Assembly: GCA_027064425.1 (NCBI GenBank) | Contig: JAMOPO010000015.1 | Location: 248,001 to 312,000 of the forward strand | Source: Methanobacteriota archaeon | GTDB lineage: Archaea; JAADCQ01; Methanopyri; Methanopyrales; Methanopyraceae | Direction: 5' to 3' | Length of the DNA: 64,000 nucleotides | Shown: positions 28,977-52,804 of the stretch, piece by piece | How the letters are laid out: each line of letters starts with the position of its first letter | Numbering within the stretch: the first letter of the stretch is position 1 | Notes under the pieces: generated by a model | What the model saw: the letters and a program-made list of their open reading frames with translations, nothing else | Databases searched by the model: none | Told to the model about the DNA's origin: nothing | Translations under genes and position numbers: made by a program

Positions 28977-29084
28977 TCACCTCCCCCCGACCGGCGCCCG
29001 GCCGCGGGTGAGGGCTCCGATGTACCTCCCGATTGTTACGGGCTTCAAAACGATTCGCGGGAAGAAGGGCGGGGGCGCGTGAGC

Positions 29085-29972
29085 TCAATCGCCCCGCGTC
29101 TGCATCCGCTCCTCCTCCGGGATCTCGGAGATATCGATGCCCTGCATCGCGACCTCGTCGCCCAGGTTCTTCGAGACCTCCGCCACGACCTCCGGGTCGT
29201 CGTAGTAAGCCGTCGCCTCCACGATCGCCTCCGCCATCTCCTGCGGCCGGTCCGACTTGAAGATGCCCGAGCCCACGAAGATGCCGTCCGCGCCCAGCTG
29301 CATCATCAGCGCCGCGTCCGCCGGCGTCGCGATGCCGCCGGCCGCGAAGTTCACCACGGGCAGCCGGCCTAGGCTGGCCACCTCCGCGACCAGGTCGAAG
29401 GGCACGCCGTACTCCTTCGCCTTCTGGTACAGCTCCTCCTTGTCCAGCTTGGTCAGCTCCGAGATCTCCTGCCGCATGATGCGCATGTGCCGCACGGCCT
29501 CGGCGACGTTGCCCGTCCCCGCCTCACCCTTCGTCCGGATCATCGCGGCGCCCTCGGCGATCCGCCGCAGGGCCTCGCCCAGGTTCCGCGCGCCGCACAC
29601 GAACGGGACGTCGAACTCCCACTTGTTGATGTGTCGCTCCTCGTCCGCCGGGGTGAGCACCTCGGACTCGTCGATCATGTCCACGCCGATGGCCTCCAAC
29701 ACCTGCGCCTCCGCCACGTGGCCGATCCGGCACTTGGCCATCACGGGGATCGTGACGTGGTCCATGATCTCCTCGATTTTCGCCGGGTCGCACATTCGAG
29801 CCACTCCACCGGCCTTCCGGATGTCCGCGGGTACCTTCTCGAGCACCATGACCGCGACCGCACCGGCGTCCTCCGCGATCTGCGCTTGCTCAACGTTGGT
29901 CACGTCCATCACGACGCCGCCTTTCAGCATGCGCGCGAAGCCCGTCTTAACCCGCCAGGTGCCCGTCTTCAT
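29085..29972 (-). CDS. pdxS: Pyridoxal 5'-phosphate synthase PdxS subunit
   Basis: 295 aa from ATG 29972, which has GGGGGA upstream; the frame is open further but the family starts at this point. Strong PdxS motifs: [24 protein letters not shown], the Schiff-base Lys in VMAKCRIGH, and [22 protein letters not shown]. It builds PLP from ribose 5-phosphate, glyceraldehyde 3-phosphate and ammonia from the PdxT glutaminase. pdxT is not adjacent. ATGATATCAT (30011-30020), a 10-bp palindrome, lies 39 nt upstream of the start. Confidence 0.96.
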
Positions 29973-30129
29973 CGGTCGGTCCCCCGACGCCCACTCAGCC
30001 CAACCGGAACATGATATCATCTGTGAAACCCTTATCGGACGGATGGTGTGACCGAGTGAGTCGGCTGCACCAACTAGGGGCGCTAACGGGGGCGCGGTCG
30101 AGGGCACCACCGGCCGCGGGGCGGGTACC

Positions 30130-30882
30130 GTGGGCAAGGTGTACTTCGTGGGCGCGGGGCCGGGCGACCCCGAGCTGATGACGCTCAAGGGGCTGCGCGT
30201 TCTCCGCCGGGCGGACCTGGTGATCTACCCCGGCTCGCTGACCCCGCGGGAGGCCGTGGAGGAGTGGGCCCCCGACGCGGAGCTCGTGGACAGCTACGGC
30301 CGGTCGCTCGAGGAGCTGGTCGAGCTGATGGTCGAGGCGGCCCGGGAGGGCAAGACCGTGGTGCGGCTGGTCTCCGGCGATCCCTTCATCTACAGCTCCG
30401 TTTACGAGCAAGTTCGGGAGCTGGAGCGGGCGGGGGTGGAGTACGAGATCGTTCCCGGCGTGAGCTCGGTGAACGCCGCCGCGGCGGCCCTGGGCGAGGA
30501 GCTGACCAAGCCCGGCGTCAGCCAGACGGTCATTCTCACCCGACCGGCGGGCAGAACGGGGAAGCCGAAGGGCGAGTCTCTGCGCGAGCTCGCCCGGCAC
30601 GGCTGCACGATGGTCATCTTCCTGGGCGTCCGGTACCTGGAGGACATCGTGGAGTCGCTTCTCGAGGGTGGCTACTCCGAGGACACCCCGGTGGCCGTCG
30701 TGTACAAGGTGTCCACTCCGGAGGAAAAGATCGTGAGGGGAACGCTGGCGGACATCGTGGAGAAGGTTAAGGAGGAGGGGATCGATCGGACGGCGCTGAT
30801 CATCGTGGGCGACGTGCTTCGAGAGGAGGGTGAGCGCTCACACCTGTACTCGAAGGAGTACGCGAGGAGCGTGAGAAGATGA
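30130..30882 (+). CDS. cbiF: Cobalt-precorrin-4 C11-methyltransferase
   Basis: 250 aa from GTG. Typical tetrapyrrole SAM methyltransferase: [18 protein letters not shown] at the N-terminus, [12 protein letters not shown], and the [13 protein letters not shown] loop, with CbiF-specific ILTRPAGRT. It methylates C11 of the corrin precursor in anaerobic cobalamin synthesis. First gene of cbiF-cbiG-cbiH; its stop overlaps the cbiG start (ATGA). Confidence 0.93.
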
Positions 30883-41726: not shown

Positions 41727-41861
41727 GCCCCGGCGGTGTAGCCCGGTCAAGGGCCCGCGGGTGACCGCGGGCCCGCCGATATCATGCGGGACTTTCGAGG
41801 CCCGCGTCCCGCGGGCCGAGGATATCCCGCGACCCGGGTTCAAATCCCGGCCGGGGCACCA
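41727..41861 (+). tRNA. tRNA-Glu (UUC) with two introns
   Basis: Acceptor GCCCCGG/CCGGGGC, T arm CCGGG-TTCAAAT-CCCGG, anticodon TTC at 41794-41796, discriminator A and an encoded CCA (41859-41861). Position 8 is C (41734). Intron 1, 41750-41780 (31 nt), sits in the D loop and has a 10-bp stem with GTGA loop. Intron 2, 41798-41823 (26 nt), is at the usual 37/38 site with an 8-bp stem. Both exon-intron junctions form bulge-helix-bulge motifs: intron 1 with helix CGGT/GCCG and bulges CAA and ATA; intron 2 with helix CTTT/GAGG and bulges CGA and ATA. Confidence 0.93.
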
Positions 41862-41871
41862 AGCCCGGAAT

Positions 41872-41890
41872 CGTTACGAATTTCGTAACG
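41872..41890 (+). repeat. 19-nt inverted repeat downstream of tRNA-Glu
   Basis: CGTTACGAATTTCGTAACG, perfect 9-bp arms around one T, 10 nt after the CCA end. The same 19-nt frame, (C/T)GTTACG-N7-TAACG, follows the other two tRNA genes in this window. Confidence 0.7.
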
Positions 41891-41906
41891 TTTGAGCGGG
41901 CGAAGG

Positions 41907-42602
41907 TCAGAGGGTGACCTCGTCGGGGCTGCCCTCCTCCACGATCTTACCGTCCCGGAGCACGACCACGCGGTCGGCCCACCGGGTGAGTGACAGGTCG
42001 TGCGTGACCATAACTATGGTCCGACCGTCCTCGTTCAAGCTCTTGAAGACCTCCATGATTCGATGCGAGTTCTTCGTGTCCAACTGACCGGTGGGCTCGT
42101 CCGCCAGGATAACCTCCGGGTCGTTGGCCAGGGCGCGGGCGATGGCTACCCGCTGCCGCTCCCCTCCACTCAGCTGGTTGGGGAACTTGTCGAAGTGCTC
42201 CTCGGAAAGCCCGACCTTCAGCAGCAGGCGCTTGGCCCGCTCTTCGTCCTCCCCGTCCGCGAGGGCCATCGGGAACATCACGTTCTCGAGGACGGTCAGC
42301 GTCTCAATGAGGTTGAACTCCTGGAAAACGAAGCCCACGTACCGGTTGCGGATCCGGGCCAGCTCCCGGTCGCTGAGGTTCGAGATCTCCCTTCCGGCCA
42401 CCTTGACCCGGCCTGAAGTGGGCGTGTCCAGCGCGCCCATGATGTGGAGTAGGGTGGACTTCCCGGAGCCTGAGGGGCCCACGATCATCAGGAACTCGCC
42501 GCGCCGGACCCGGAGGTCCACGCCTCGCAGCGCCTCCACCCGGGTGGGGCCCGAGTTGTACACCTTCCGGACGCCCTCCAGCTCGATGACGACCTCGGCC
42601 AT
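41907..42602 (-). CDS. ABC transporter ATP-binding protein (MacB/LolD type)
   Basis: 231 aa. Walker A GPSGSGKST, signature LSGGERQRVAIARAL, Walker B VILADEPTGQLD, and switch His in VMVTHD. Sequence type is that of MacB/LolD ATPases that energise FtsX-like permeases. Encoded 12 nt downstream of such a permease. Probable export or extraction of a lipid, peptide or lipoprotein; substrate unknown. Confidence 0.94.
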   Translation of the reverse strand: MAEVVIELEGVRKVYNSGPTRVEALRGVDLRVRRGEFLMIVGPSGSGKSTLLHIMGALDTPTSGRVKVAGREISNLSDRELARIRNRYVGFVFQEFNLIETLTVLENVMFPMALADGEDEERAKRLLLKVGLSEEHFDKFPNQLSGGERQRVAIARALANDPEVILADEPTGQLDTKNSHRIMEVFKSLNEDGRTIVMVTHDLSLTRWADRVVVLRDGKIVEEGSPDEVTL

Positions 42603-42614
42603 TCACCCCTCCCC

Positions 42615-43727
42615 CTACTCGTGGCGAAGGGCCTTCACCGGGTCCACTTTCGCTGCCTTCCACGCTGGGTACAGGCCGGAGAACACGCCGATGCCGATGG
42701 CCACCAGGAAGCCTCGCAGGATGGTATCCGGGGTCACGATCATGGTGATGGCTTTGCCCTCCAGTCGCTGGAGGAGGTCCACCACTACGTAGGTGCCCGC
42801 TACGCCCAGCACGCAGCCCAGCGCGCCGCCGATCAGCGAGATCAGCATCGACTCGACCAGGAATATCTTCATCACGCGGGCCCGGGTGGCGCCGACGGCC
42901 TTCATGACGCCGATCTCGCGCCGGCGCTCGAGGACGGACATGAGCATGGTGTTGGCCACGCCGAGCCCGCCTACGATCCCCGCGATGCAGCTGAGCGCCA
43001 GGCCCGCGATCTCCACGGTCCTCAGGTTGTTAATCATGCCCTGGACGGCCTTGCTGGTCTCGATGGCCTCCACGCCCGGAATCCGCCGCTCGATCTCCCG
43101 CTTTACCCGCCTCGGGTCCGAGGTCTGCACGAACACGCAGCTGACAGCTCGCCCCCGAAGCGCCTTCACGCTGTCCAGCGTCGTGATCATGCACATGTTG
43201 GCCAGCTGGGAGGAGGTCCTGAACTCGCCCGCGAGGCGCAGCTTGACCCCGCCCAGGTCCACGGTGTCTCCGAGCCTGGGCCGTATTTGGTTCCAGGCGA
43301 GGCTGCCGAGCGCCGCCTCACCGTCACCCGGAAGCTTGCCCCGGATCGGCTCCACCCGGGACCCGACGACGAAGTCGTACTGTCCGCGCTCGACCGCCGC
43401 GATCATGATCGGCTGGCGGCGTCCCCCGATCGTCACGACCCGGTTGTTGAACCAGACGGACACCGTGTGCTTAACGCCGGGAATCCTCCGAACCCGCTCC
43501 TCCACGGACTGATCCAACAGGCTGGACAGCGGATCGGGGGCCGTCTTGGACTTAACAATAAGTGAAGCGGAACCACCCAGTGCCACTTTGATGTCGTGCT
43601 GCATCCCCTTGGCCACCGAGGATATACTCACGACGGCCGAGATCCCTATTGCCACACCCAGGATGGTTATCAGCGACCTCACCTTCCTTCTGGCCAAATT
43701 TCTCACAGCCATTTTCAGTGTAATCAA
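42615..43727 (-). CDS. ABC transporter permease (MacB/FtsX type)
   Basis: 370 aa: N-terminal helix after MAVRNLARRKVRSLITILGVAIGIS, an extracytoplasmic MacB_PCD-like domain (about residues 45-230), then three helices with MSVLERRREIGVMKAVGATRA, the cytoplasmic coupling segment of FtsX-type permeases. Works with the ATPase just downstream. Confidence 0.92.
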   Translation of the reverse strand: MITLKMAVRNLARRKVRSLITILGVAIGISAVVSISSVAKGMQHDIKVALGGSASLIVKSKTAPDPLSSLLDQSVEERVRRIPGVKHTVSVWFNNRVVTIGGRRQPIMIAAVERGQYDFVVGSRVEPIRGKLPGDGEAALGSLAWNQIRPRLGDTVDLGGVKLRLAGEFRTSSQLANMCMITTLDSVKALRGRAVSCVFVQTSDPRRVKREIERRIPGVEAIETSKAVQGMINNLRTVEIAGLALSCIAGIVGGLGVANTMLMSVLERRREIGVMKAVGATRARVMKIFLVESMLISLIGGALGCVLGVAGTYVVVDLLQRLEGKAITMIVTPDTILRGFLVAIGIGVFSGLYPAWKAAKVDPVKALRHE

Positions 43728-43791
43728 CGTTCACACCACTCCCACAATCGAACTGAGTGCCCCCTTCAGCCCCGCGCCCGCGTCCGACCAC

Positions 43792-44508
43792 TTAAATTGA
43801 TTCCAGGGATTTCTTTGGCGTGCCCCGGCGCACAGGCTTTCCATAAATCCTTTTAATCTCCTCGGCCTTGACCGACTCGCCCTCCCGCCGGACCGTCGGG
43901 CGCCCGTCCGGCTTGATCGCGTGCACGCGGAACAGCATCCCGTCCAGCTCGTAGATCTCGCCGACGGTGAACTCCTCCTCCCGATCCACCTCGACCTTCT
44001 CCGAGATCGTGTAGCCGGACGGCAGGTTGATCGAGACGCCGATGCGGGCCGGGATGTCCAGCGAGACCGTCCACACCGACTGGATGTCCATCACCCTGGC
44101 CCGCTTCACGCTGTCCTCCTTGTAGGTGGCAATGTTCGTGATCTCGACGCGCTCACCGTCCACTTCCAGCTCGTCACCGACCTCCAGCTCCTCCCACGGG
44201 TCCAGCTTGATCTCCTTGCACTCCGACTCCTCGTACCGGCTGATCGTCACCTTCACCTTCTTCAGCCCGTAAAACACCAGCCGCGCCGGGTTGACGGTAC
44301 CGCAGCTCTCGCACCGGGCCAGCACGTTGGCTATGTACCGCGGGACTCCCTTCTCGTCCGGGCCCTTCTCGTGTACCGTGGCCCGCACGACCTCTTGAGG
44401 CACCTCGTCGTCCGGCGAGCAGCCCGAGCACGGGGCGTAGACGATCCTACCCTCCAGGTCCGAGTCCGACAGGTCCTCCACGGTGGTCTTCGTGTCGATC
44501 GTGATCAC
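43792..44508 (-). CDS. COG1326-like archaeal zinc-finger protein
   Basis: About 238 aa. Zinc-binding Cys pairs CSGC (followed by SPDDEVPQE) and CESCG, then beta-rich domains (EELEVGDELEVDGERVEITNI). It fits the uncharacterised archaeal Zn-finger family COG1326. Start: GTG 44508 preferred because GGGGGTGG lies five bases upstream; the frame can be extended to GTG 44535. Divergent from DUF371 with 28 nt between starts. Function unknown, RNA-related at a guess. Confidence 0.75.
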   Translation of the reverse strand: MITIDTKTTVEDLSDSDLEGRIVYAPCSGCSPDDEVPQEVVRATVHEKGPDEKGVPRYIANVLARCESCGTVNPARLVFYGLKKVKVTISRYEESECKEIKLDPWEELEVGDELEVDGERVEITNIATYKEDSVKRARVMDIQSVWTVSLDIPARIGVSINLPSGYTISEKVEVDREEEFTVGEIYELDGMLFRVHAIKPDGRPTVRREGESVKAEEIKRIYGKPVRRGTPKKSLESI

Positions 44509-44536
44509 GGGCACCACCCCCAGGGGGTCCGGCACG

Positions 44537-44953
44537 TTGGAGGTCAGGATCCGGGCTCGCGGTCACGAGAACGTAACGGGCCGGCACCGGAGCACGTTCG
44601 AGATCACTAAGGACCCGGAGATCGGACCCACGGCGGACTGCATCATAGGGGTCAGGGCGGACCGCGCCTGCGCCGACTTACCGGAGGAGTTCAAGCGTGC
44701 GCTGCGGGCAGGGGCCCGGGTGGAGGTCACGCTGGAGGCGGGCGGCGTCCGAGACCGAGCCGTGGGCAGGGGTGACCCCAGCCTTAAACTCTCTGATGAA
44801 CGCAGCATGGTTTTCCGACGCAGCGATTACGTGGACGAGCGCACCGTGCTCGTCCGGTGCGACAAGGCGGCGCGCGACCTGGACAGAGAGCTCATCGAGC
44901 GGCTCCGGGACCCGGGTACGGTCCTGGAGGTGAGGCTTCGGGTCCTGGAGTGA
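44537..44953 (+). CDS. DUF371 protein
   Basis: 138 aa from TTG 44537, with AGGGGGT about nine bases upstream. DUF371 hallmark ARGHENVTGRHRSTFEITKDPE and DCIIGVRAD are present. These archaeal proteins are uncharacterised; the conserved His residues might bind metal. It overlaps neither neighbour if the divergent zinc-finger gene starts at 44508. Confidence 0.85.
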   Translation: MEVRIRARGHENVTGRHRSTFEITKDPEIGPTADCIIGVRADRACADLPEEFKRALRAGARVEVTLEAGGVRDRAVGRGDPSLKLSDERSMVFRRSDYVDERTVLVRCDKAARDLDRELIERLRDPGTVLEVRLRVLE

Positions 44954-44972
44954 GGGCGCCCGCGCGGGCCAT

Positions 44973-44991
44973 CGTTAAGGGTTTCGTAACA
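44973..44991 (-). repeat. 19-nt inverted-repeat element downstream of tRNA-Arg
   Basis: On the minus strand TGTTACGAAACCCTTAACG, 8 nt after the tRNA CCA end. Same layout as the elements at 41872-41890 and 52767-52785, with imperfect arms. Confidence 0.65.
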
Positions 44992-44999
44992 ATTGGCCG

Positions 45000-45077
<78 letters not shown>

Positions 45078-45105
45078 TGCCCCGTGCGGTGCGCGCCGGG
45101 TGGTG

Positions 45106-45116
45106 CTATAATAAGG
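45106..45116 (-). promoter_or_regulatory. TATA box of tRNA-Arg
   Basis: CCTTATTATAG on the minus strand, centred about 33 nt upstream of the tRNA 5' end at 45077. Confidence 0.6.
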
Positions 45117-45123
45117 TTGCGGG

Positions 45124-45726
45124 CTAGCGCCGGCCGCGGCGTCCCTCCGGCACGAACACTCGATACTTGTCCCGCGTCTCACCCTTCAGCTCCGCCAGCA
45201 CGCGCTCCTTGATCATGTCCTTCGGGTGCCGGCGCAGCCCCTTCACCCGCTCCTTGATGTCGTCGAGGCTCTCGAACGGCTCCTTCTCGCGCTCCTCCAG
45301 GATCCGCTCGAGCGTTTTCTTCCCGATGCCGGGCAGCAGCTCCAGCTGGTGCAGGCGCGGGGTGATCGGGCGGGCCTCGTTGAAGAACCGGACGAAGTCC
45401 TCCTCGTTGTCCTCAATGATCTTCTCGATGGCGTGGGGAAGCTCCTCCTTGGCCGTCTGCGTGAGGTCGTCGTAGCTGAGGCGACGATCCACGTGGTGGA
45501 TCTTGTCCCGCTTACCCCGGCCCACGTAGACCTCCTCGTGAAGCTCCAGGAAGACGTCATCCTTGGGCGTGAGCTCGAGGAGGATGAAGAAGTCCTTCCC
45601 CACCGCCTGCGCCAGGGGCTTGCGGCGGTGCGGGGGAGCGTCGGGTCGGTAGGGGAGGAAGTCGAGGACTATCGCGTACTCCTCATAGGGCCTCCCCTTG
45701 GGCTGCTTGTACAGTATCTCTACCAT
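45124..45726 (-). CDS. DUF655 RNA-binding protein (OB plus HhH)
   Basis: 200 aa. N-terminal OB-like part with YEEYAIVLDFLPYRP, then a C-terminal helix-hairpin-helix (LELLPGIGKKTLERILEER). DUF655 proteins are universal in archaea and travel with rpl21e and rpo4, as here, suggesting a role in ribosome biogenesis or RNA handling. In many archaea ksgA follows; here a tRNA-Arg gene does instead. Confidence 0.93.
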   Translation of the reverse strand: MVEILYKQPKGRPYEEYAIVLDFLPYRPDAPPHRRKPLAQAVGKDFFILLELTPKDDVFLELHEEVYVGRGKRDKIHHVDRRLSYDDLTQTAKEELPHAIEKIIEDNEEDFVRFFNEARPITPRLHQLELLPGIGKKTLERILEEREKEPFESLDDIKERVKGLRRHPKDMIKERVLAELKGETRDKYRVFVPEGRRGRR

Positions 45727-45732
45727 TTTGGG

Positions 45733-46140
45733 TCACTCCTCTTCCGATTCTTCTAACCTCTCAGCGACCTCTTGAACGACCTCGAGTATCTCCTTGACCA
45801 CCGCCTCGTCGGCCCGTCTTAGTATCCTTTTGCCCGCGGACTCCAGGACCGTCTTCACCTCCTCCTCGTCCCGCGGCAGCACGTCCAGCAGCCGGTTAAC
45901 CAGGACCTCAATGGTCCGCTCGTTGGCGGTGAGGTCCCTTACCACGGAGCGCAGCTTCTCTCGCGCCTCTTCGAGCTCCTCCTCGTCCAGCTTGCCGAAC
46001 TTCTCCAGGTACTTCAGCGCCTCCCGCTGGTCGTAGGTGAGCTCCGGCTCCCGCTCTTTCAGCACCTTCTCCACCACCTTCCGCGCCTCGTGGACGCTGA
46101 CGGGCCGCCGGCCGCGCACGCGGAGTGAGATGGAGGACAA
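45733..46140 (-). CDS. rpo4: DNA-directed RNA polymerase subunit Rpo4 (RpoF)
   Basis: 135 aa. Matches archaeal Rpb4: N-terminal strand then helices with LTYDQREALKYLEKFGKL and the C-terminal VLESAGKRI. Forms the polymerase stalk with Rpo7. Six nt upstream of DUF655, 12 nt downstream of rpl21e; standard archaeal order. Confidence 0.93.
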   Translation of the reverse strand: MSSISLRVRGRRPVSVHEARKVVEKVLKEREPELTYDQREALKYLEKFGKLDEEELEEAREKLRSVVRDLTANERTIEVLVNRLLDVLPRDEEEVKTVLESAGKRILRRADEAVVKEILEVVQEVAERLEESEEE

Positions 46141-46152
46141 GGGAGAACCCCG

Positions 46153-46476
46153 CTACTCCCCTTCACCCTCCTCCATCTCCGGCTGCTTCTGCGGGCGTAG
46201 GTGCTCGGGGGCGACGATCAGCTTCTTCTCCTTGCCGCCGTCCCGGACCTTGACGATGTAGGCGCGCCCCTGCTTTCCGACGATCTCGCCCGTGCGGCCG
46301 TGGAACCGCGGGTGCGGCATCCCGCTGTGAACGCTGGGGTCGATCACGATGTGCACCTTGTCTCCTTTCTTGTACTCGTACATCAGCGGGCTCAGCGGGG
46401 ACAGGCCGCGCTCCCGCGGCTTCTTCCGCAGCTTCTTCCGCGTTCGGCTTCGGAAGCCCTTGGACTTCCTAACCAT
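46153..46476 (-). CDS. rpl21e: Ribosomal protein eL21
   Basis: 107 aa, N-terminal [14 protein letters not shown] and the [27 protein letters not shown] core identify eL21. Acidic extra tail (EMEEGEGE). Overlaps the upstream Trm56-like gene by 8 nt. Confidence 0.97.
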
Positions 46477-46891
46477 TCGAGCCCGCCCCCAGCTCGTGGA
46501 GGATGATCGCGAGCGCGGCGAGCTCTCCCACCTCGGCGCCCACTCCGACGGTGATGTCCGGGTCTACGTCCAGCTCGTCCAGGCGCTCTACGGGCGCGAG
46601 GAGTAGCGTGTCGGACGGGTTTAATTTGTTCAGCCCACCATCCTCCTCCGGGTCGACCAGGGCGAGCTGGCCCTCGGCGAACTTGAGCGCGTCCTCGAGA
46701 GACTCGGTGACCATCACCGGGACGCCGGCCCGCTCCTCCGGGTGTTCGAGGACCTGGTTGATTCCATCGAGGGCCGCCTTGGAGGTGGGGTTGGAGTAGA
46801 TGAGCAGCTCCGCGCCTAAGTTTCCGGCGATCAGCGCCGCGTGATTCACCCGGAAGTGACTGAAGGGCTGGTGGTAGATGACGCGAACCAC
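46469..46891 (-). CDS. Short SPOUT-like protein, possibly Trm56-related
   Basis: 140 aa. Not a confident match, but the order of blocks resembles archaeal tRNA (cytidine-56) 2'-O-methyltransferase Trm56: [18 protein letters not shown] after the first strand, [11 protein letters not shown], and the C-terminal [23 protein letters not shown], which in Trm56 forms the SAM-binding knot (IGNQPHSEVAALAVLLDR). It is about 40 residues shorter than Trm56. If real, it methylates or binds tRNA. Encoded just upstream of rpl21e, overlapping it. Confidence 0.45.
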
Positions 46892-46897
46892 GGCAGG

Positions 46898-48115
46898 TCA
46901 CCCCGTGAACGGGCACGTCGCCACCGCGTCCAGGGCGGGGAGTCGCTCGCCCGCTAGGAGGCGCAGCATGGCCCCGCCACCGGTGCTCACGTGGTCGATG
47001 TCGTCGTACACGCCGCACGCCTTGGAGGCGGCGATGATGTGGCCGCCACCGATCACGGAGAACCCGTCCGCGGAGGCGATGGCGTCGAGGACCTCGTACG
47101 TTCCCTTCTCGAACCCGCGCTCCTCGTAGACTCCCATCGGCCCGTTCGCGATGATCATGCCGGCCCGTCGGATCTCCTCCCGGTACTCGTCCACCGTCTC
47201 GGAGCCGATGTCATAGACCGGTGCGTCGGCCGGCAGCTCCTCAACGTCCACCTCGCGGCGCTCGCCCCCGACGTTCAGCGCCACGTCCTTCGGGATCAGG
47301 ATCTTCCCGTCATCCTCCTCGAGGAGCTCCCGCGCCTCGTCCAGGTAGCGGGTGTAGCCCTTCTCCTCCAGAATCCGGCGGGACGGTCTGCCTAGATCCA
47401 CGCCGGAGGCCCAAAGGAAGAGGTTCCCGACCAGGCCGCCCAGGAGGATGCGGCGCACATTGTCCATTTGCAGGGCCCGGCGGACGACCTTGATCGCATC
47501 GCCGACCTTGGACCCGCCGATGACGAACACGCCGTCCTCCATCTCGTTCTTGACCATGTTCTCCAGAACCTCGAGCTCCCGCTCCATGATCCTGCCCACG
47601 CACGAGGGCAGGCGACGGGTGAATCCCACCAGGGAGGCGTTGGATCGGTGAGCGGCGGCGAAGGCATCGTTAACGAAGACGTCGAACAGCGGGGCCAGGT
47701 TCCTGACCAGGTGCCGGCGGGCGTGCCACTCGGGGTCCCGGTTGATGCGCTCCTCGGCGTAGAACCGGACGTTCTCGAGCAGCAGGACCTGGCCCGGGTC
47801 AAGGGATCGAATCTTCTCCTTCGCCGTGGGTCCGAACACGTCCGGGACGTACTCGAAGTCGTCCAGCTCCTCCGCCATGATCTCCGCGTGCGGCTCCAGC
47901 GTGGTGAAATCGTCCTCGCCCGGTCGACCCTGGTGGGCGAGGATGGCGACCCGGGCGCCCTCCTCGACGAGTTCTTGGATGGTGACCAGGTGGCGCCGAA
48001 TGCGCTCGTCGTCCTCGATCTTGCCGTCCACGATCGTGGAGTTGATGTCCACGCGGAGAAGGACCCACCGCTCCTCGAACTCGAAGTCGTCCATCGTGCG
48101 CACGTTCTCGTACAC
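46898..48115 (-). CDS. pgk: 3-phosphoglycerate kinase
   Basis: 405 aa from GTG 48115 (GGGGGATG upstream). PGK signatures: LLRVDINSTIVDG, LAHQGRPG, LLLENVRFYAEE, FVNDAFAAAHRSNAS, VIGGSKVGDAIKV and the C-terminal VSTGGGAML. In a methanogen it runs mainly in gluconeogenesis. Followed by no gap-filling genes until the Trm56-like gene 7 nt on; preceded by hxlB, tpiA and rpiA in the same direction. Confidence 0.97.
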   Translation of the reverse strand: MYENVRTMDDFEFEERWVLLRVDINSTIVDGKIEDDERIRRHLVTIQELVEEGARVAILAHQGRPGEDDFTTLEPHAEIMAEELDDFEYVPDVFGPTAKEKIRSLDPGQVLLLENVRFYAEERINRDPEWHARRHLVRNLAPLFDVFVNDAFAAAHRSNASLVGFTRRLPSCVGRIMERELEVLENMVKNEMEDGVFVIGGSKVGDAIKVVRRALQMDNVRRILLGGLVGNLFLWASGVDLGRPSRRILEEKGYTRYLDEARELLEEDDGKILIPKDVALNVGGERREVDVEELPADAPVYDIGSETVDEYREEIRRAGMIIANGPMGVYEERGFEKGTYEVLDAIASADGFSVIGGGHIIAASKACGVYDDIDHVSTGGGAMLRLLAGERLPALDAVATCPFTG

Positions 48116-48126
48116 GGGACATCCCC

Positions 48127-48678
48127 CTACTGGATCTTGGCGTGGCGCTCCCACATGTCGGACTCGTCCACTCCCAACTCCTCCGCCAGCTGAGCGGCAA
48201 GACCGTCCAAGAAGGACAACATGAGCAGCTCCGAAAACGTGCGAAGTATGACCTCCTCGGGCTCGGGCAGGACCACCAGAACGTCCGCCCGCTCGGCGAT
48301 CTTGGACTCCGCGTTCATCGTGATGGCCAGGACCTCCGCCCCCTCCTCCCGGGCCACGTCCGCCGCGTAGTTCACGAACTCCGTGTTACCGGAGACGCTG
48401 AGCGCTACGAGGAGGTCGTCCGACTTGATGGCCCGCTCCGTGCTGTGCCCGACGATGTAGCATCGAGCGCCCATCTGAACCAGTCGAACCGCGAAGCACT
48501 CACCGATCAGGCCCGTCCGTCCCATCCCGACGATGAATATGCCCCGGTCGTTTTCGATCTTCTCAACCAGCAGGTCCAGCGCCTTGCGAACGTCCTCCTC
48601 GGGCAGGTTGTCGCACGCGTGCTCGATGACCTCCGCCTCGTGCCGCATGATCTCGAGCAGCCGATCCAACCGGCCCAA
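48127..48678 (-). CDS. hxlB: 6-phospho-3-hexuloisomerase (SIS domain)
   Basis: 183 aa, TTG start. SIS fold with FIVGMGRTGLIGECFAVRL, YIVGHSTERAIKSDDLLVALSVSGNT; these match archaeal PHI, which converts hexulose 6-phosphate to fructose 6-phosphate. In archaea without the oxidative pentose phosphate pathway, HPS/PHI run in reverse to make ribulose 5-phosphate, which fits the nearby rpiA. A separate HPS gene is not in this window. Confidence 0.9.
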   Translation of the reverse strand: MGRLDRLLEIMRHEAEVIEHACDNLPEEDVRKALDLLVEKIENDRGIFIVGMGRTGLIGECFAVRLVQMGARCYIVGHSTERAIKSDDLLVALSVSGNTEFVNYAADVAREEGAEVLAITMNAESKIAERADVLVVLPEPEEVILRTFSELLMLSFLDGLAAQLAEELGVDESDMWERHAKIQ

Positions 48679-48702
48679 GGTCCCGGCCCCGGGAGCGGTT
48701 CG

Positions 48703-49383
48703 TTACTCTAGGCCGGAGGCCAGGTCGAGGAGCGCCTCTTTGGGATCGTCGGCCAGCACGACGCCGGAGGCCACCAGAACGCCATCACTACCCAGCTCGA
48801 TCGCTGCGCGCACGTCCGAGCCGTCGGTGATTCCCGCCCCGCACAGGACTGCCGTGTCCTCGGACACCTCCTTCACCGCCTCCACGCTCCGCTCGACCAC
48901 CTCGGGGTCCGCCTTGGACACCGGCGTGCCCGTCCCGATGAGCTCCGGCGGCTCCACGGCCACCGCGTGAGGCTGCAGCGCGCCCGCGGCCCGGGCGGCC
49001 ATCGAGTCGCTCGCGCACACGATGGTCAGCAGCCCCTCGTTCATGCACGCCCGGCACACGTCCTTTAGATCGTCCAGCCGCATCCGGCGCTCGGAGTGGT
49101 TCAGCAGGGTGCCGTCCGCCCCGGCCGCGGCCACCATCTCGGGCGTCACATGACCCGTGCGGCTCCCGGGCTCCGCGGCGTCCACGGCCTGCGCGAACAC
49201 GACCACGTCGCCGTCGCCCACCTCCTTTACCACGCGGTACAGGTCCGTGTGCGCGGGGCAAATCCCGATCTTCACCCCCACCTCCTCCGCCACCTCCGCG
49301 GCGATCTTCGCGAGTCGAACGGCGTTGTCCCCAACCGCCTCCGAGTACGCCTTGAAGTTGACTACAATGGGCGGAATTCGCAA
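48703..49383 (-). CDS. tpiA: Triosephosphate isomerase
   Basis: 226 aa, the short archaeal form. N-terminal PPIVVNFKAYSEA (catalytic Lys replaced context NFK), LLNHSERR (catalytic His), the loop-6 region with VEPPELIGTG, and GAGITDGSDV near the phosphate site. Same operon as rpiA and pgk. Confidence 0.95.
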   Translation of the reverse strand: MRIPPIVVNFKAYSEAVGDNAVRLAKIAAEVAEEVGVKIGICPAHTDLYRVVKEVGDGDVVVFAQAVDAAEPGSRTGHVTPEMVAAAGADGTLLNHSERRMRLDDLKDVCRACMNEGLLTIVCASDSMAARAAGALQPHAVAVEPPELIGTGTPVSKADPEVVERSVEAVKEVSEDTAVLCGAGITDGSDVRAAIELGSDGVLVASGVVLADDPKEALLDLASGLE

Positions 49384-49396
49384 GCTCCCGACCCCC

Positions 49397-50041
49397 TCAC
49401 GCCCGCCCGACGATCACCCTATCTACCTTGTCCCCGGGGAATACCCCGCACTCCACGACGCCCGGAACGGACGCGAGCTCCCGCTCCAGCTCCGCGGGAT
49501 CCCAGTCCCCCTCCACCCGTAAGTCGACGATCGGGTTACCGTGATCCGACGTGACCGGCCCGTACTTCTCCTCGCAACGCCGTGGCGAGACCTGACCGAA
49601 CCGCCTCAGCTCCCGCAGTGTCAGCTCGTAGCAGCCCCGGAGCACCTCGACCGGTACGGGCACCTCCCACAGCTCCTCCACCAGCTTCGACTCGTCCACG
49701 ATCACCCAAAACTCGTCCGCCGCGTAGTCGATCGCCTTCTCCAGCGCGTGACAGGCCCCGCCCCCCTTGATCAGGTTCCAGTCATCGTCCACCGCGTCCG
49801 CGCCGTCCACGGCCACCGGGATCTCCTCCGGGGGCACCGCCACGGTCTCCAGCCCCAGCTCCCGGCAGACGGACAGCGTCCCCGGGATCGTGGTGAACAC
49901 TCGAACCTCGGGCAGCCGCTCGGCCAGCTCCCTCAGGAACGCCTCCACCGTCGTCCCCGCACCCACCGCCACCAGGTCAACGCCCTCGGACTCCAGCGCC
50001 TCCACCGCCCGCCGCGCCGCGTCCCGCTTCGCCGCCTCCAA
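49397..50041 (-). CDS. rpiA: Ribose-5-phosphate isomerase A
   Basis: 214 aa. RpiA motifs GAGTTVEAFL, VDGADAVDDDWNLIKGGGACH and YGPVTSDHGNPIVDLR. Interconverts ribulose 5-phosphate and ribose 5-phosphate; with the HPS/PHI route it supplies ribose for nucleotides and PRPP (prs lies 1.7 kb away). First gene of the rpiA-tpiA-hxlB-pgk run. Confidence 0.95.
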   Translation of the reverse strand: MEAAKRDAARRAVEALESEGVDLVAVGAGTTVEAFLRELAERLPEVRVFTTIPGTLSVCRELGLETVAVPPEEIPVAVDGADAVDDDWNLIKGGGACHALEKAIDYAADEFWVIVDESKLVEELWEVPVPVEVLRGCYELTLRELRRFGQVSPRRCEEKYGPVTSDHGNPIVDLRVEGDWDPAELERELASVPGVVECGVFPGDKVDRVIVGRA

Positions 50042-50059
50042 CTCCTTACACCCCGGGAA

Positions 50060-50070
50060 GGATTCTTAAC
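50060..50070 (+). promoter_or_regulatory. Putative TATA region of carB (C-terminal half)
   Basis: GATTCTTAACG, an AT-rich patch 36-46 nt upstream of the ATG at 50106, in a 64-nt divergent gap to rpiA; it could serve either direction. Confidence 0.35.
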
Positions 50071-50105
50071 GACCGGAACTGAGCGGACCACGCGGGTGCG
50101 GCCGG

Positions 50106-51755
50106 ATGGGCGGATCCCAAGATAAAATCGTGGTGATCGGGGCCGGCCCCAACCGAATCGGGCAGGGAATCGAGTTCGACTACTGCACCGTGCACGCGGT
50201 CTGGGCCATCCAGGAGGAGGGTTACAAGGCTATCATCATCAACAACAACCCTGAGACGGTCTCCACGGACTACGACACCTCGGACAAGCTCTACTTCGAG
50301 CCCCTCACCCTGGAGGACGTGCTCAACGTTGTCGAGAAGGAGCGCCCGCTGGGCGTGCTCACCCAGTTCGGCGGTCAGACGGCCGTCAACCTGACCGTGC
50401 CGCTGGCGGAGCGCGGCGTCCGAATCCTCGGCACCGACCCGAAGGACGTGGACAAGCTGGAGGACCGGGACAAGTTCTCCAAGCTGCTTAAGCGCCTGGG
50501 CATCCCGCAGCCCGAGAGCGGGACGGCCCGCGAGCCGGAGGAGGCGGTGGAGATCGCGGAGCAGATCGGGTACCCGGTTCTCGTCCGTCCGTCCTACGTG
50601 ATCGGTGGCCGGGCCATGGAGATCGTGTACGATGAGGAGGAGCTGCGGCGGTACATCGAGGAGGCCGCGCGCGTCTCGCCCGAGCACCCGATCCTCATCG
50701 ACAAGTTCGTTGAGGGCGGGATCGAGTGCGAGATCGACGGTGCGCGCGACGAGGCCGGCAACCTCCTCATCCCGCAGATCATGGAGCACATCGAGGAGGC
50801 GGGCGTGCACTCGGGCGACTCGGCGTGCGTGGTCCCGCCGCAGACGCTGCCCGAGCACGTGCAGGAGACGATCCTCGAGTACGCGCACGACATCGCCGAG
50901 GCGGCCAACGTGATCGGCCTGATCAACATCCAGTTCGTGTACGACCCGGAGGACGACACCGTCTACGTGATCGAGGCGAACCCGCGGGCCAGCCGAACGG
51001 TCCCGTTCATCAGCAAGGCCACCGGGGCACCCCTGGCCAAGATCGCCACGAAGGCGATCCTCGGCCGCGAGATCCCGGACATCATGGAGGAGATGGGGCT
51101 GGAATACCCGGGCGATGCCCGGACCTTCGACCTCGACATCGTCGCCGTGAAGGAGGCCGTCTTCTCCTTCGAGAAGTGGCCGGGCGTGGACCCAGTTCTC
51201 GGCCCGGAGATGAAGTCGACGGGCGAGGTGATGGGCATCGACCGCACCTTCGGCGCGGCCTACTGGAAGGCCCAGCTGGCCGCCGGCCACGAGCTGCCGC
51301 TGGAGGGGACGGTCGTCATCTCCGTCGCCGATCGGGACAAGCCGGAGATCGTGCCCGTGGCCCGGAAGCTCGAGGAGCTCGGGTTCGACCTGCTCGCCAC
51401 CCGCGGAACGGCCCGGTTCCTGCGAGACCACGGGATCGAGTGCGAGGTCGTGAAGAAGGTCTCCGAGGGGCACCCGAACGTCGTCGACCTGATCCGCGAG
51501 GGCGAGGTCGACCTCGTGATCAACACGCCCACTCAGGGCAAGGACGCGCGCCGCGACGGCTACGCGATCCGGCGCGCCGCGGTCAAGTTTAAGGTCCCGT
51601 ACATCACCACCGTCGCCGCCGCCAAGGCCGCCGTCGAGGCGATCGAGCTGGTCAAGAAGAAGGGAGTCGCCGTGAACTGCCTGCACGACCTGCACGACGG
51701 GACCTGGGCCCCGAAGCGCGTCAGCCCGAAGGAGCTCCGGGGGGCCTCCGAATGA
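50106..51755 (+). CDS. carB: Carbamoyl-phosphate synthase large subunit, C-terminal half
   Basis: 549 aa, half the length of one-piece CarB (about 1070). It begins directly with the second synthetase unit: VVIGAGPNRIGQGIEFDYC, QFGGQTAVNL, an ATP-grasp domain with GLINIQFVYDPEDDTVYVIEANPRASR (read in two parts), and the C-terminal MGS-like allosteric domain (VINTPTQGKDARRDGYAIRR). Split CarB is known in M. jannaschii and M. kandleri, so this is a native split rather than a fragment. It phosphorylates carbamate for pyrimidines and arginine. carA and the N-half are not here. Overlaps prs by four bases. Confidence 0.95.
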   Translation: MGGSQDKIVVIGAGPNRIGQGIEFDYCTVHAVWAIQEEGYKAIIINNNPETVSTDYDTSDKLYFEPLTLEDVLNVVEKERPLGVLTQFGGQTAVNLTVPLAERGVRILGTDPKDVDKLEDRDKFSKLLKRLGIPQPESGTAREPEEAVEIAEQIGYPVLVRPSYVIGGRAMEIVYDEEELRRYIEEAARVSPEHPILIDKFVEGGIECEIDGARDEAGNLLIPQIMEHIEEAGVHSGDSACVVPPQTLPEHVQETILEYAHDIAEAANVIGLINIQFVYDPEDDTVYVIEANPRASRTVPFISKATGAPLAKIATKAILGREIPDIMEEMGLEYPGDARTFDLDIVAVKEAVFSFEKWPGVDPVLGPEMKSTGEVMGIDRTFGAAYWKAQLAAGHELPLEGTVVISVADRDKPEIVPVARKLEELGFDLLATRGTARFLRDHGIECEVVKKVSEGHPNVVDLIREGEVDLVINTPTQGKDARRDGYAIRRAAVKFKVPYITTVAAAKAAVEAIELVKKKGVAVNCLHDLHDGTWAPKRVSPKELRGASE

Positions 51756-52627
51756 TCGTCCTCGCCACGGCCGAGGGGGCCCGGCTCGCCCGGCGGCTGG
51801 CCGACGTTCTGGACGCGGAGCTCGCACCCATCGAGGAGGACCGGTTCCCCGACGGTGAGCAGATCGTGCGGGTCCCGCCGGAGCTGGACGGGACGGTCAT
51901 CGTCGTTCACTCCATGGTCCCGCCCCAGGACGAGAACTTCCTCAAGTGCCTCATCGCCCTCGACGCCGCCCGCGAGAACGGGGCCGACCGCGTCATCGCC
52001 GTCGTGCCCTACGTGGCCTACTCGCGGCAGGACAAGCGCTTCGAGCCCGGCGAGCCCGTCTCCTTCCGCGCCGTGGCCCGCGCCATCTCCGCCAACGCCG
52101 ACGCGTTCGTGACCGTCGACCTCCACGAGCCCAGCACGCTCGAGTTCTTCGACGTTCCAGCCGAAAACGCGACCGCGGCCGAAGAGATCGGGAAGTACCT
52201 GCGCGAGCGGTTCGACGGGGAGGAGCTCGCGGTCATCGCCCCGGACGAGGGCGCCCGGGAGCTGGCGGAGCGCACCGCCTCCGTCTGCGACGCGGAGCAC
52301 GACCACCTCGAGAAGGAGCGGATCAGCGGCGAGGAGGTGAGGATCTACCCCAAGGAGTTGGACGTCGAGGGCAAGACGGTGGTCATTGTGGACGACATGA
52401 TCGACACGGGCGGCACCATGATCGAGGCCGCCAAGGCGCTGAAGGAGCAGGGTGCGGAGGAGCTCTACGCGGCCTGCACGCACGCGCTGCTCACCCGGAA
52501 CGCGGCCTCCCGACTGCTGGCGGCAGGGTTCAAGGACATCATCGCCACGGACACGGTGCCCACACCGTACGAGCGGGTCAGCGTCGCCGAGCCCGTCTCG
52601 GAGGCGATCGACCGGCTGCCGGAGTAA
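51752..52627 (+). CDS. prs: Ribose-phosphate pyrophosphokinase
   Basis: 291 aa. PRPP synthase motifs: DRFPDGEQ, VVPYVAYSRQDKRF (flexible loop), VTVDLHEPSTLEFF and the PRPP-binding VVIVDDMIDTGGTM. Makes PRPP from ribose 5-phosphate and ATP for nucleotides, histidine and others. ATGA overlap with carB couples carbamoyl phosphate and PRPP supply for pyrimidine synthesis. Confidence 0.96.
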   Translation: MIVLATAEGARLARRLADVLDAELAPIEEDRFPDGEQIVRVPPELDGTVIVVHSMVPPQDENFLKCLIALDAARENGADRVIAVVPYVAYSRQDKRFEPGEPVSFRAVARAISANADAFVTVDLHEPSTLEFFDVPAENATAAEEIGKYLRERFDGEELAVIAPDEGARELAERTASVCDAEHDHLEKERISGEEVRIYPKELDVEGKTVVIVDDMIDTGGTMIEAAKALKEQGAEELYAACTHALLTRNAASRLLAAGFKDIIATDTVPTPYERVSVAEPVSEAIDRLPE

Positions 52628-52630
52628 ACC

Positions 52631-52638
52631 TTAAAATC
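52631..52638 (+). promoter_or_regulatory. TATA box of tRNA-Ser
   Basis: TTAAAATC, directly after the prs stop, about 33 nt upstream of the tRNA-Ser 5' end. Confidence 0.55.
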
Positions 52639-52667
52639 GCGCGGTTGATGGGCAGGTCCCGGAGGGA

Positions 52668-52758
52668 GCCGGGGCGGCCGAGCCCGGTCCAAGGCGCGGG
52701 ACTGCTAATCCCGTGGCCCGTATGGGCCGCCCGGGTTCAAATCCCGGCCCCGGCGCCA
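52668..52758 (+). tRNA. tRNA-Ser (GCU)
   Basis: Class II tRNA: acceptor GCCGGGG/CCCCGGC, anticodon loop CTGCTAA (GCT at 52704-52706), long variable arm (GGCCC-GTAT-GGGCC), T arm CCGGG-TTCAAAT-CCCGG, discriminator G and encoded CCA. No intron. Position 8 is C (52675). Confidence 0.95.
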
Positions 52759-52766
52759 GCCGGTAT

Positions 52767-52785
52767 CGTTACGCGTCACATAACG
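52767..52785 (+). repeat. 19-nt inverted-repeat element downstream of tRNA-Ser
   Basis: CGTTACGCGTCACATAACG, 8 nt after the CCA end; outer arms CGTTA/TAACG. Third occurrence of the element. Confidence 0.65.
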
Positions 52786-52804
52786 GTTCTGGGGGCCTCG
52801 CGAG

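What the first reader, a model, noticed from the sequence alone, without database searches (positions are those of the whole stretch)
41872..52785. A fixed 19-nt inverted-repeat element 8-10 nt downstream of every tRNA gene
All three tRNA genes (41727-41861 plus, 45000-45077 minus, 52668-52758 plus) are followed in their own orientation by a 19-nt element of pattern (C/T)GTTACG-N7-TAACG: 41872-41890, 44991-44973 and 52767-52785. The middle differs but arms, length and distance from CCA (10, 8 and 8 nt) are constant. It could be a terminator, a 3'-trailer processing signal or a recognition site for a tRNA-specific factor. A one-mismatch version (29034-29052) sits in the thyA/pdxS gap without a tRNA. 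I do not know of a described element of this kind.
Basis: seen in the sequence. Interest (0 to 1): 0.75.

Follow-up and report, generated by a model that had tools for sequence, protein, structure and literature searches.

The report
Methanopyrus palindrome marking RNA gene ends
In the heat-loving archaeon Methanopyrus, a short DNA palindrome sits just past the end of every tRNA gene checked, and past other stable-RNA genes and some protein genes, so it looks like a stop sign for transcription rather than a tRNA-specific signal.

Summary
The unit is a 25-nt palindrome, AATCGTTAYGA-N3-TCRTAACGATT. In this genome (Methanopyrus; G000) the 19-nt pattern with one mismatch matches 147 times against 0 for the reversed control. 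All 35 tRNA genes located have one, as do all 34, 34 and 24 tRNA flanks read in three relatives. Sixteen other archaeal genera show nothing above chance. It is not tRNA-specific. At least eight orthologous protein genes keep it in a relative. Arms are conserved as DNA, with almost no covariation and no predicted RNA hairpin at 98 C. Best explanation: a transcription terminator working at DNA level, probably bound by an unknown dimeric protein that blocks RNA polymerase. Methanopyrus lacks TFS, the factor that rescues blocked polymerase; this is suggestive only. Prior art: a 2017 paper reported the motif after about half of M. kandleri tRNAs and guessed a 3'-maturation signal. No transcript-end data were available; function is inferred.

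The parts
41727..41861 (+). intron-containing tRNA gene with encoded CCA (anticodon UUC, Glu, read by eye)
   Evidence: T-arm TTCAAATCC and CCA read directly; ARAGORN misses it; isotype is my reading
41869..41893 (+). 25-nt palindromic 3'-end element after the tRNA; also 13 nt after the stop of a predicted minus-strand gene ending at 41907, so it may serve both convergent genes
   Evidence: PWM 40.1 bits
45000..45077 (-). tRNA-Arg (TCT)
44970..44994 (-). 25-nt palindromic 3'-end element after tRNA-Arg; also 16 nt after the stop of a predicted plus-strand gene ending at 44953
52668..52758 (+). tRNA-Ser (GCT)
52764..52788 (+). 25-nt palindromic 3'-end element after tRNA-Ser (weaker copy)
29085..30188 (-). 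pdxS (SOR/SNZ family)
   Evidence: PF01680 E=4.7e-109 (L111:2086-3189)
29031..29055 (-). 25-nt palindromic 3'-end element 29 nt after the pdxS stop codon, C-rich spacer between

Best explanation
The palindrome is a genus-specific transcription terminator that acts as a DNA site. A dimeric DNA-binding protein (not identified) sits on AATCGTTAYGA-N3-TCRTAACGATT just past the end of stable-RNA genes and a set of mRNAs, and stops RNA polymerase arriving from either side. The polymerase is then released, perhaps with FttA/aCPSF1, which is present. Shown: the sequence, its copy number, its position at 3' ends, its presence in all five genomes of the genus, the lack of RNA-type covariation, and the absence of TFS. 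Inferred: that it terminates transcription, that a protein binds it, and that loss of TFS favoured it.
For: Every tRNA gene located in G000 (35) and every tRNA flank read in G001 (34), G002 (34) and G004 (24) has it. It also follows SRP RNA, RNase P RNA, 5S, 16S, 23S, tRNA-Sec and C/D-box-like sRNAs. In the G000 loci drawn for the non-tRNA sites, 27 of 54 sites lie within 60 nt after an ORF stop against 5.5% of random positions, and 5 of 54 near a start only against 4.3%; G002 gives 18 of 39 against 6.5%. Stop-to-element distances start at 11 nt. The core lies 8-11 nt after the encoded CCA in 78 of 79 genes, never closer than 8, and 9-10 nt after the discriminator in all 12 genes read as CCA-less in G001 and G002, so the ruler is the encoded RNA end. 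Convergent pairs share one copy. At least eight orthologous protein genes keep the element in both G000 and G002. No T5 run lies in the tRNA downstream stretches examined. Pairing across the arms is 78.0% against 77.3% after shuffling, with 36 of 89 non-pairs at columns 9/17. Predicted RNA hairpins are all unfolded at 98 C. TFS has no above-cut-off match in the five Methanopyrus genomes and clear ones in five other archaea (absence in M. kandleri also stated in PMC5715097). FttA is present.
Against: No transcript 3'-end data were available. Only 4 of 138 gene ends in 159 unselected kb have the element, so it is not the general terminator. From general knowledge, polymerase stops roughly 11-18 nt before a steric block, whereas the tRNA-to-core gap is as short as 8 nt, so a simple block at the site's edge would clip the CCA unless polymerase can push closer. 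No binding protein was identified. Copies inside operons (after mcrB and atpA) would have to be leaky. The arms are not perfectly symmetric at tRNAs: the tRNA-proximal half is better conserved, although protein-gene copies show no orientation preference (13 of 26).
Confidence: 0.6

Rival explanations
1. The element is read in the RNA, as a trailer hairpin or signal for the enzyme that makes the tRNA 3' end (the 2017 proposal).
For: Fixed 8-11 nt spacing after the encoded tRNA end; 3' processing is deduced to come first in M. kandleri tRNA maturation (PMC3695527).
Against: The same element follows SRP RNA, RNase P RNA, rRNAs and protein stop codons. Almost no covariation, with C.A mismatches (31) commoner than U.G pairs (7) at columns 9/17. 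No stable RNA hairpin predicted at 98 C.
Confidence: 0.12
2. The element is a topoisomerase or chromosome-organisation site placed behind strongly transcribed genes, like gyrase-binding BIMEs in E. coli.
For: A DNA palindrome at 3' ends and between convergent genes; associated protein genes include ones usually strongly expressed (mcrB, atpA, thermosome, rpS15); Methanopyrus has unusual topoisomerases (general knowledge).
Against: The lower bound on spacing to the encoded RNA end is tighter than a supercoiling sink would need.
Confidence: 0.15
3. The element is an operator that regulates the following genes from their promoters.
For: A 25-bp near-palindrome with half-sites about one turn apart resembles a dimer operator; the copy after atpA overlaps the start codon of the next gene.
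Against: Sites are enriched after stops (27 of 54), not at starts only (5 of 54, null 4.3%); several lie between convergent genes, where there is no promoter.
Confidence: 0.05

Closest known systems
CGTTA(N)9TAACG motif downstream of tRNAs in M. kandleri AV19 (BMC Genomics 2017, PMC5217627)
   Same: Same motif, same genus, same place about 10 bp after tRNA genes
   Different: That report gives about half of the tRNAs in one genome, calls it tRNA-related and proposes a 3'-maturation signal. Here: all tRNAs read in four genomes, plus other RNA and protein gene ends, and a terminator reading
Protein-roadblock termination, e.g. yeast Reb1 (Colin et al. 2014, cited in PMC10310618); rDNA terminators such as TTF-I/Sal box (general knowledge)
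   Same: A sequence-specific DNA site just past the gene end; protein blocks polymerase
   Different: Those are eukaryotic; no protein is identified here; the site is a palindrome and appears to work from both sides
Archaeal intrinsic terminators (oligo-T / U-rich)
   Same: Located just past gene ends
   Different: No T5 runs after the tRNAs; a palindrome takes that place
REP/BIME elements of E. coli (general knowledge)
   Same: Palindromes at 3' ends and between convergent genes
   Different: Much shorter, mostly single, tightly spaced from RNA ends, present at every tRNA read

Membership tests
2017 M. kandleri tRNA-downstream motif | CGTTA-N9-TAACG about 10 bp after tRNA 3' ends | tested here: met
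   motif text
2017 M. kandleri tRNA-downstream motif | specific to tRNA genes | tested here: not met
   37 of 72 strong G000 sites follow other genes or are unassigned
Archaeal oligo-T intrinsic terminator | run of T at the RNA end | tested here: not met
   no T5 in 89 tRNA downstream stretches, T4 in 4
Bacterial-type intrinsic hairpin terminator | stable RNA hairpin with covarying stem, then T run | tested here: not met
   almost no covariation over shuffles; unfolded at 98 C, no T run
Protein-roadblock terminator (Reb1/TTF-I type) | DNA site conserved as sequence, positioned just past gene ends | tested here: met
Protein-roadblock terminator (Reb1/TTF-I type) | a protein that binds the site and stops polymerase | not testable with these tools
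   no candidate identified; needs pull-down and in-vitro transcription
tRNA 3'-processing signal | confined to processed tRNA precursors | tested here: not met
REP/BIME | bound by a topoisomerase | not tested
   no assay or binding data available

The most novel reading that the evidence does not exclude
An archaeal genus that lost the transcript-rescue factor TFS ends its stable-RNA and some mRNA transcription by a dedicated DNA-bound roadblock protein on a genus-specific palindrome. It would be the archaeal counterpart of the eukaryotic TTF-I/Reb1 terminators.
Probability: 0.4. Interest if true: 0.85.

Novelty: new variant of a known kind. Interest (0 to 1): 0.62.

Why it matters
How archaea end transcription is still being worked out and rests on a few model species that use U-rich signals. 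A genus-wide palindromic DNA terminator after every tRNA gene read and several other stable-RNA genes, in the one archaeal lineage known to lack TFS, would show a second way to do it. It gives a defined DNA bait for finding the protein, and corrects the published guess that the motif is a tRNA maturation signal.

Tried and rejected
RNA hairpin: rejected as the main reading because of weak covariation and instability at 98 C. tRNA-specific function: rejected because of the other gene ends. Spread beyond the genus: an exact-pattern scan of GTDB genomes found dense hits only in Methanopyri, with scattered single hits elsewhere as expected by chance; a relatives scan found none above chance in 16 other genera. 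A C-rich CACGCC motif before the element is linked to element-bearing G000 protein genes (12 of 31 spacers with CACGC; CACGCC in 3 of 60 gene ends of the unselected stretches), but no CACGC occurs in G002 spacers, where only C-richness remains, so it was kept as a side observation. The binding protein could not be sought without proteomes. My ORF caller misses some genes, especially in G002, so 3'-end assignments are lower bounds.

Full report
What was checked. In the whole genome the pattern with up to one mismatch has 77 forward and 70 reverse matches, while the reversed pattern has none. Named records with dense matches in GTDB are Methanopyri archaea, and one same-genus genome, G002, a single contig of 1,694,969 bases, is by its size probably M. 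kandleri AV19 (inference).

The element. Aligning the downstream flanks of tRNAs from three genomes (89 sequences) gives AATCGTTAYGA-N3-TCRTAACGATT, with G5, T6, A20 and C21 invariant. A sequence model finds 73 places with E <= 0.1 in G000. Two of these are the same site at overlapping contig ends, leaving 72. In 159 kb of unselected sequence, 10 strand-hits were seen against 0 in shuffles.

tRNAs. All 31 tRNAs examined have it, and with tRNA-Sec and genes recognised by ARAGORN or their T-arm the number is 35. In relatives, 34 of 34 (G001), 34 of 34 (G002) and 24 of 24 (G004) tRNA flanks read have it. In G001, G002 and G004 the core starts 8-11 nt after the encoded CCA in 78 of 79 genes (one at 14) and never closer than 8. 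In the 12 genes without an encoded CCA in G001 and G002 it starts 9-10 nt after the discriminator, where CCA-bearing genes have 11-14, so the position follows the encoded end of the RNA.

Other sites. Eight of the 72 follow other non-coding RNAs: SRP RNA, RNase P RNA, 5S, 16S (two), 23S and two C/D-box-like sRNAs (one C/D assignment rests on similarity to the G002 copy, read by eye). In G002 the same holds for 5S, 16S and 23S. Twenty-three follow ORF stops at 11-55 nt, two of them on ORFs with competing frames. Six are unassigned. The genes include mcrB, ATP synthase A subunit, thermosome, polyferredoxin, ribosomal S15, pdxS, rubrerythrin and anaerobic ribonucleotide reductase. Near-stop placement is 27 of 54 against 5.5% of random positions; near-start-only placement is 5 of 54 against 4.3%. 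Thermosome, atpA, polyferredoxin, mcrB, 3-dehydroquinate synthase II and several uncharacterised genes keep the element in G002 at similar distances although the element's own letters mostly differ. Spacers between stop and element are C-rich and G-poor: C 0.56, G 0.21 in G000 against C 0.38, G 0.34 after other stops.

DNA or RNA. If the arms paired in RNA, changes should compensate. Pairing is 78.0% against 77.3% after shuffling, and the covariation score 0.108 against 0.096; a small excess, as related sequences can give. At columns 9/17, C.A mismatches number 31 and U.G pairs 7. Predicted RNA structures have zero energy at 98 C for all 89. A DNA-binding dimer fits better (inference).

Mechanism. 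[quoted passage not shown] That it works by a bound protein is inferred from the palindrome. TFS, which rescues stalled polymerase, has no above-cut-off match in the five Methanopyrus genomes and clear ones in five other archaea; its absence in M. kandleri is published (PMC5715097, PMC7289017). FttA is present. TFIIS/Gre-type cleavage factors rescue polymerase stalled at roadblocks (PMC10310618), so a lineage without TFS might rely on roadblocks; this is a hypothesis. A weak point is that the shortest tRNA gap (8 nt) is less than the usual standoff of a blocked polymerase.

What is known. The motif was reported in 2017 from AV19, after about half of tRNAs, with a guess at 3' maturation (PMC5217627). 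The M. kandleri small-RNA paper does not mention trailers or downstream signals in its main text. Searches of the held library found no other description. New here are its presence at every tRNA read in four genomes, its use at other gene ends, its conservation at orthologous protein genes, and the evidence that it acts as DNA.

Verdict.

Noticed in passing
L119:2004-2028 (G000 C26:20003) and L209:2004-2028 (G002): A copy lies between mcrB and the next gene (mcrD by position) in both genomes, inside what is normally one operon; it may act as a leaky stop that raises mcrB over the rest.
   Followed up: partly
L102:2032-2056 and 2647-2671 (G000 C3:145632, 146248): Two copies flank a SAM-dependent RNA methyltransferase gene (PF04013) after atpA; the first overlaps its start codon, and its 19-nt core is identical in four genomes.
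   Followed up: partly
L101:1978-2019 and L105:389-441: Tandem double copies, one pair overlapping, at the thermosome end and at another gene end.
   Followed up: no
L119, L107, L132 and others, between stop codon and element: C-rich spacer, often containing CCCTCACGCCC, in element-bearing protein genes of G000; only C-richness remains in G002.
   Followed up: partly
window 41727-41861: tRNA gene missed by ARAGORN and Rfam, apparently tRNA-Glu with introns including one in the D-loop, as described for M. kandleri.
   Followed up: partly
L114:1-2076 (G000 C15:353500-355575): The FttA/aCPSF1 gene is directly followed by an AIR-synthase-like gene whose end carries a strong copy of the element.
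   Followed up: no
G001 and G002 tRNAs: Six tRNA genes in each of these two genomes were read as lacking an encoded CCA, while nearly all others encode it.
   Followed up: no
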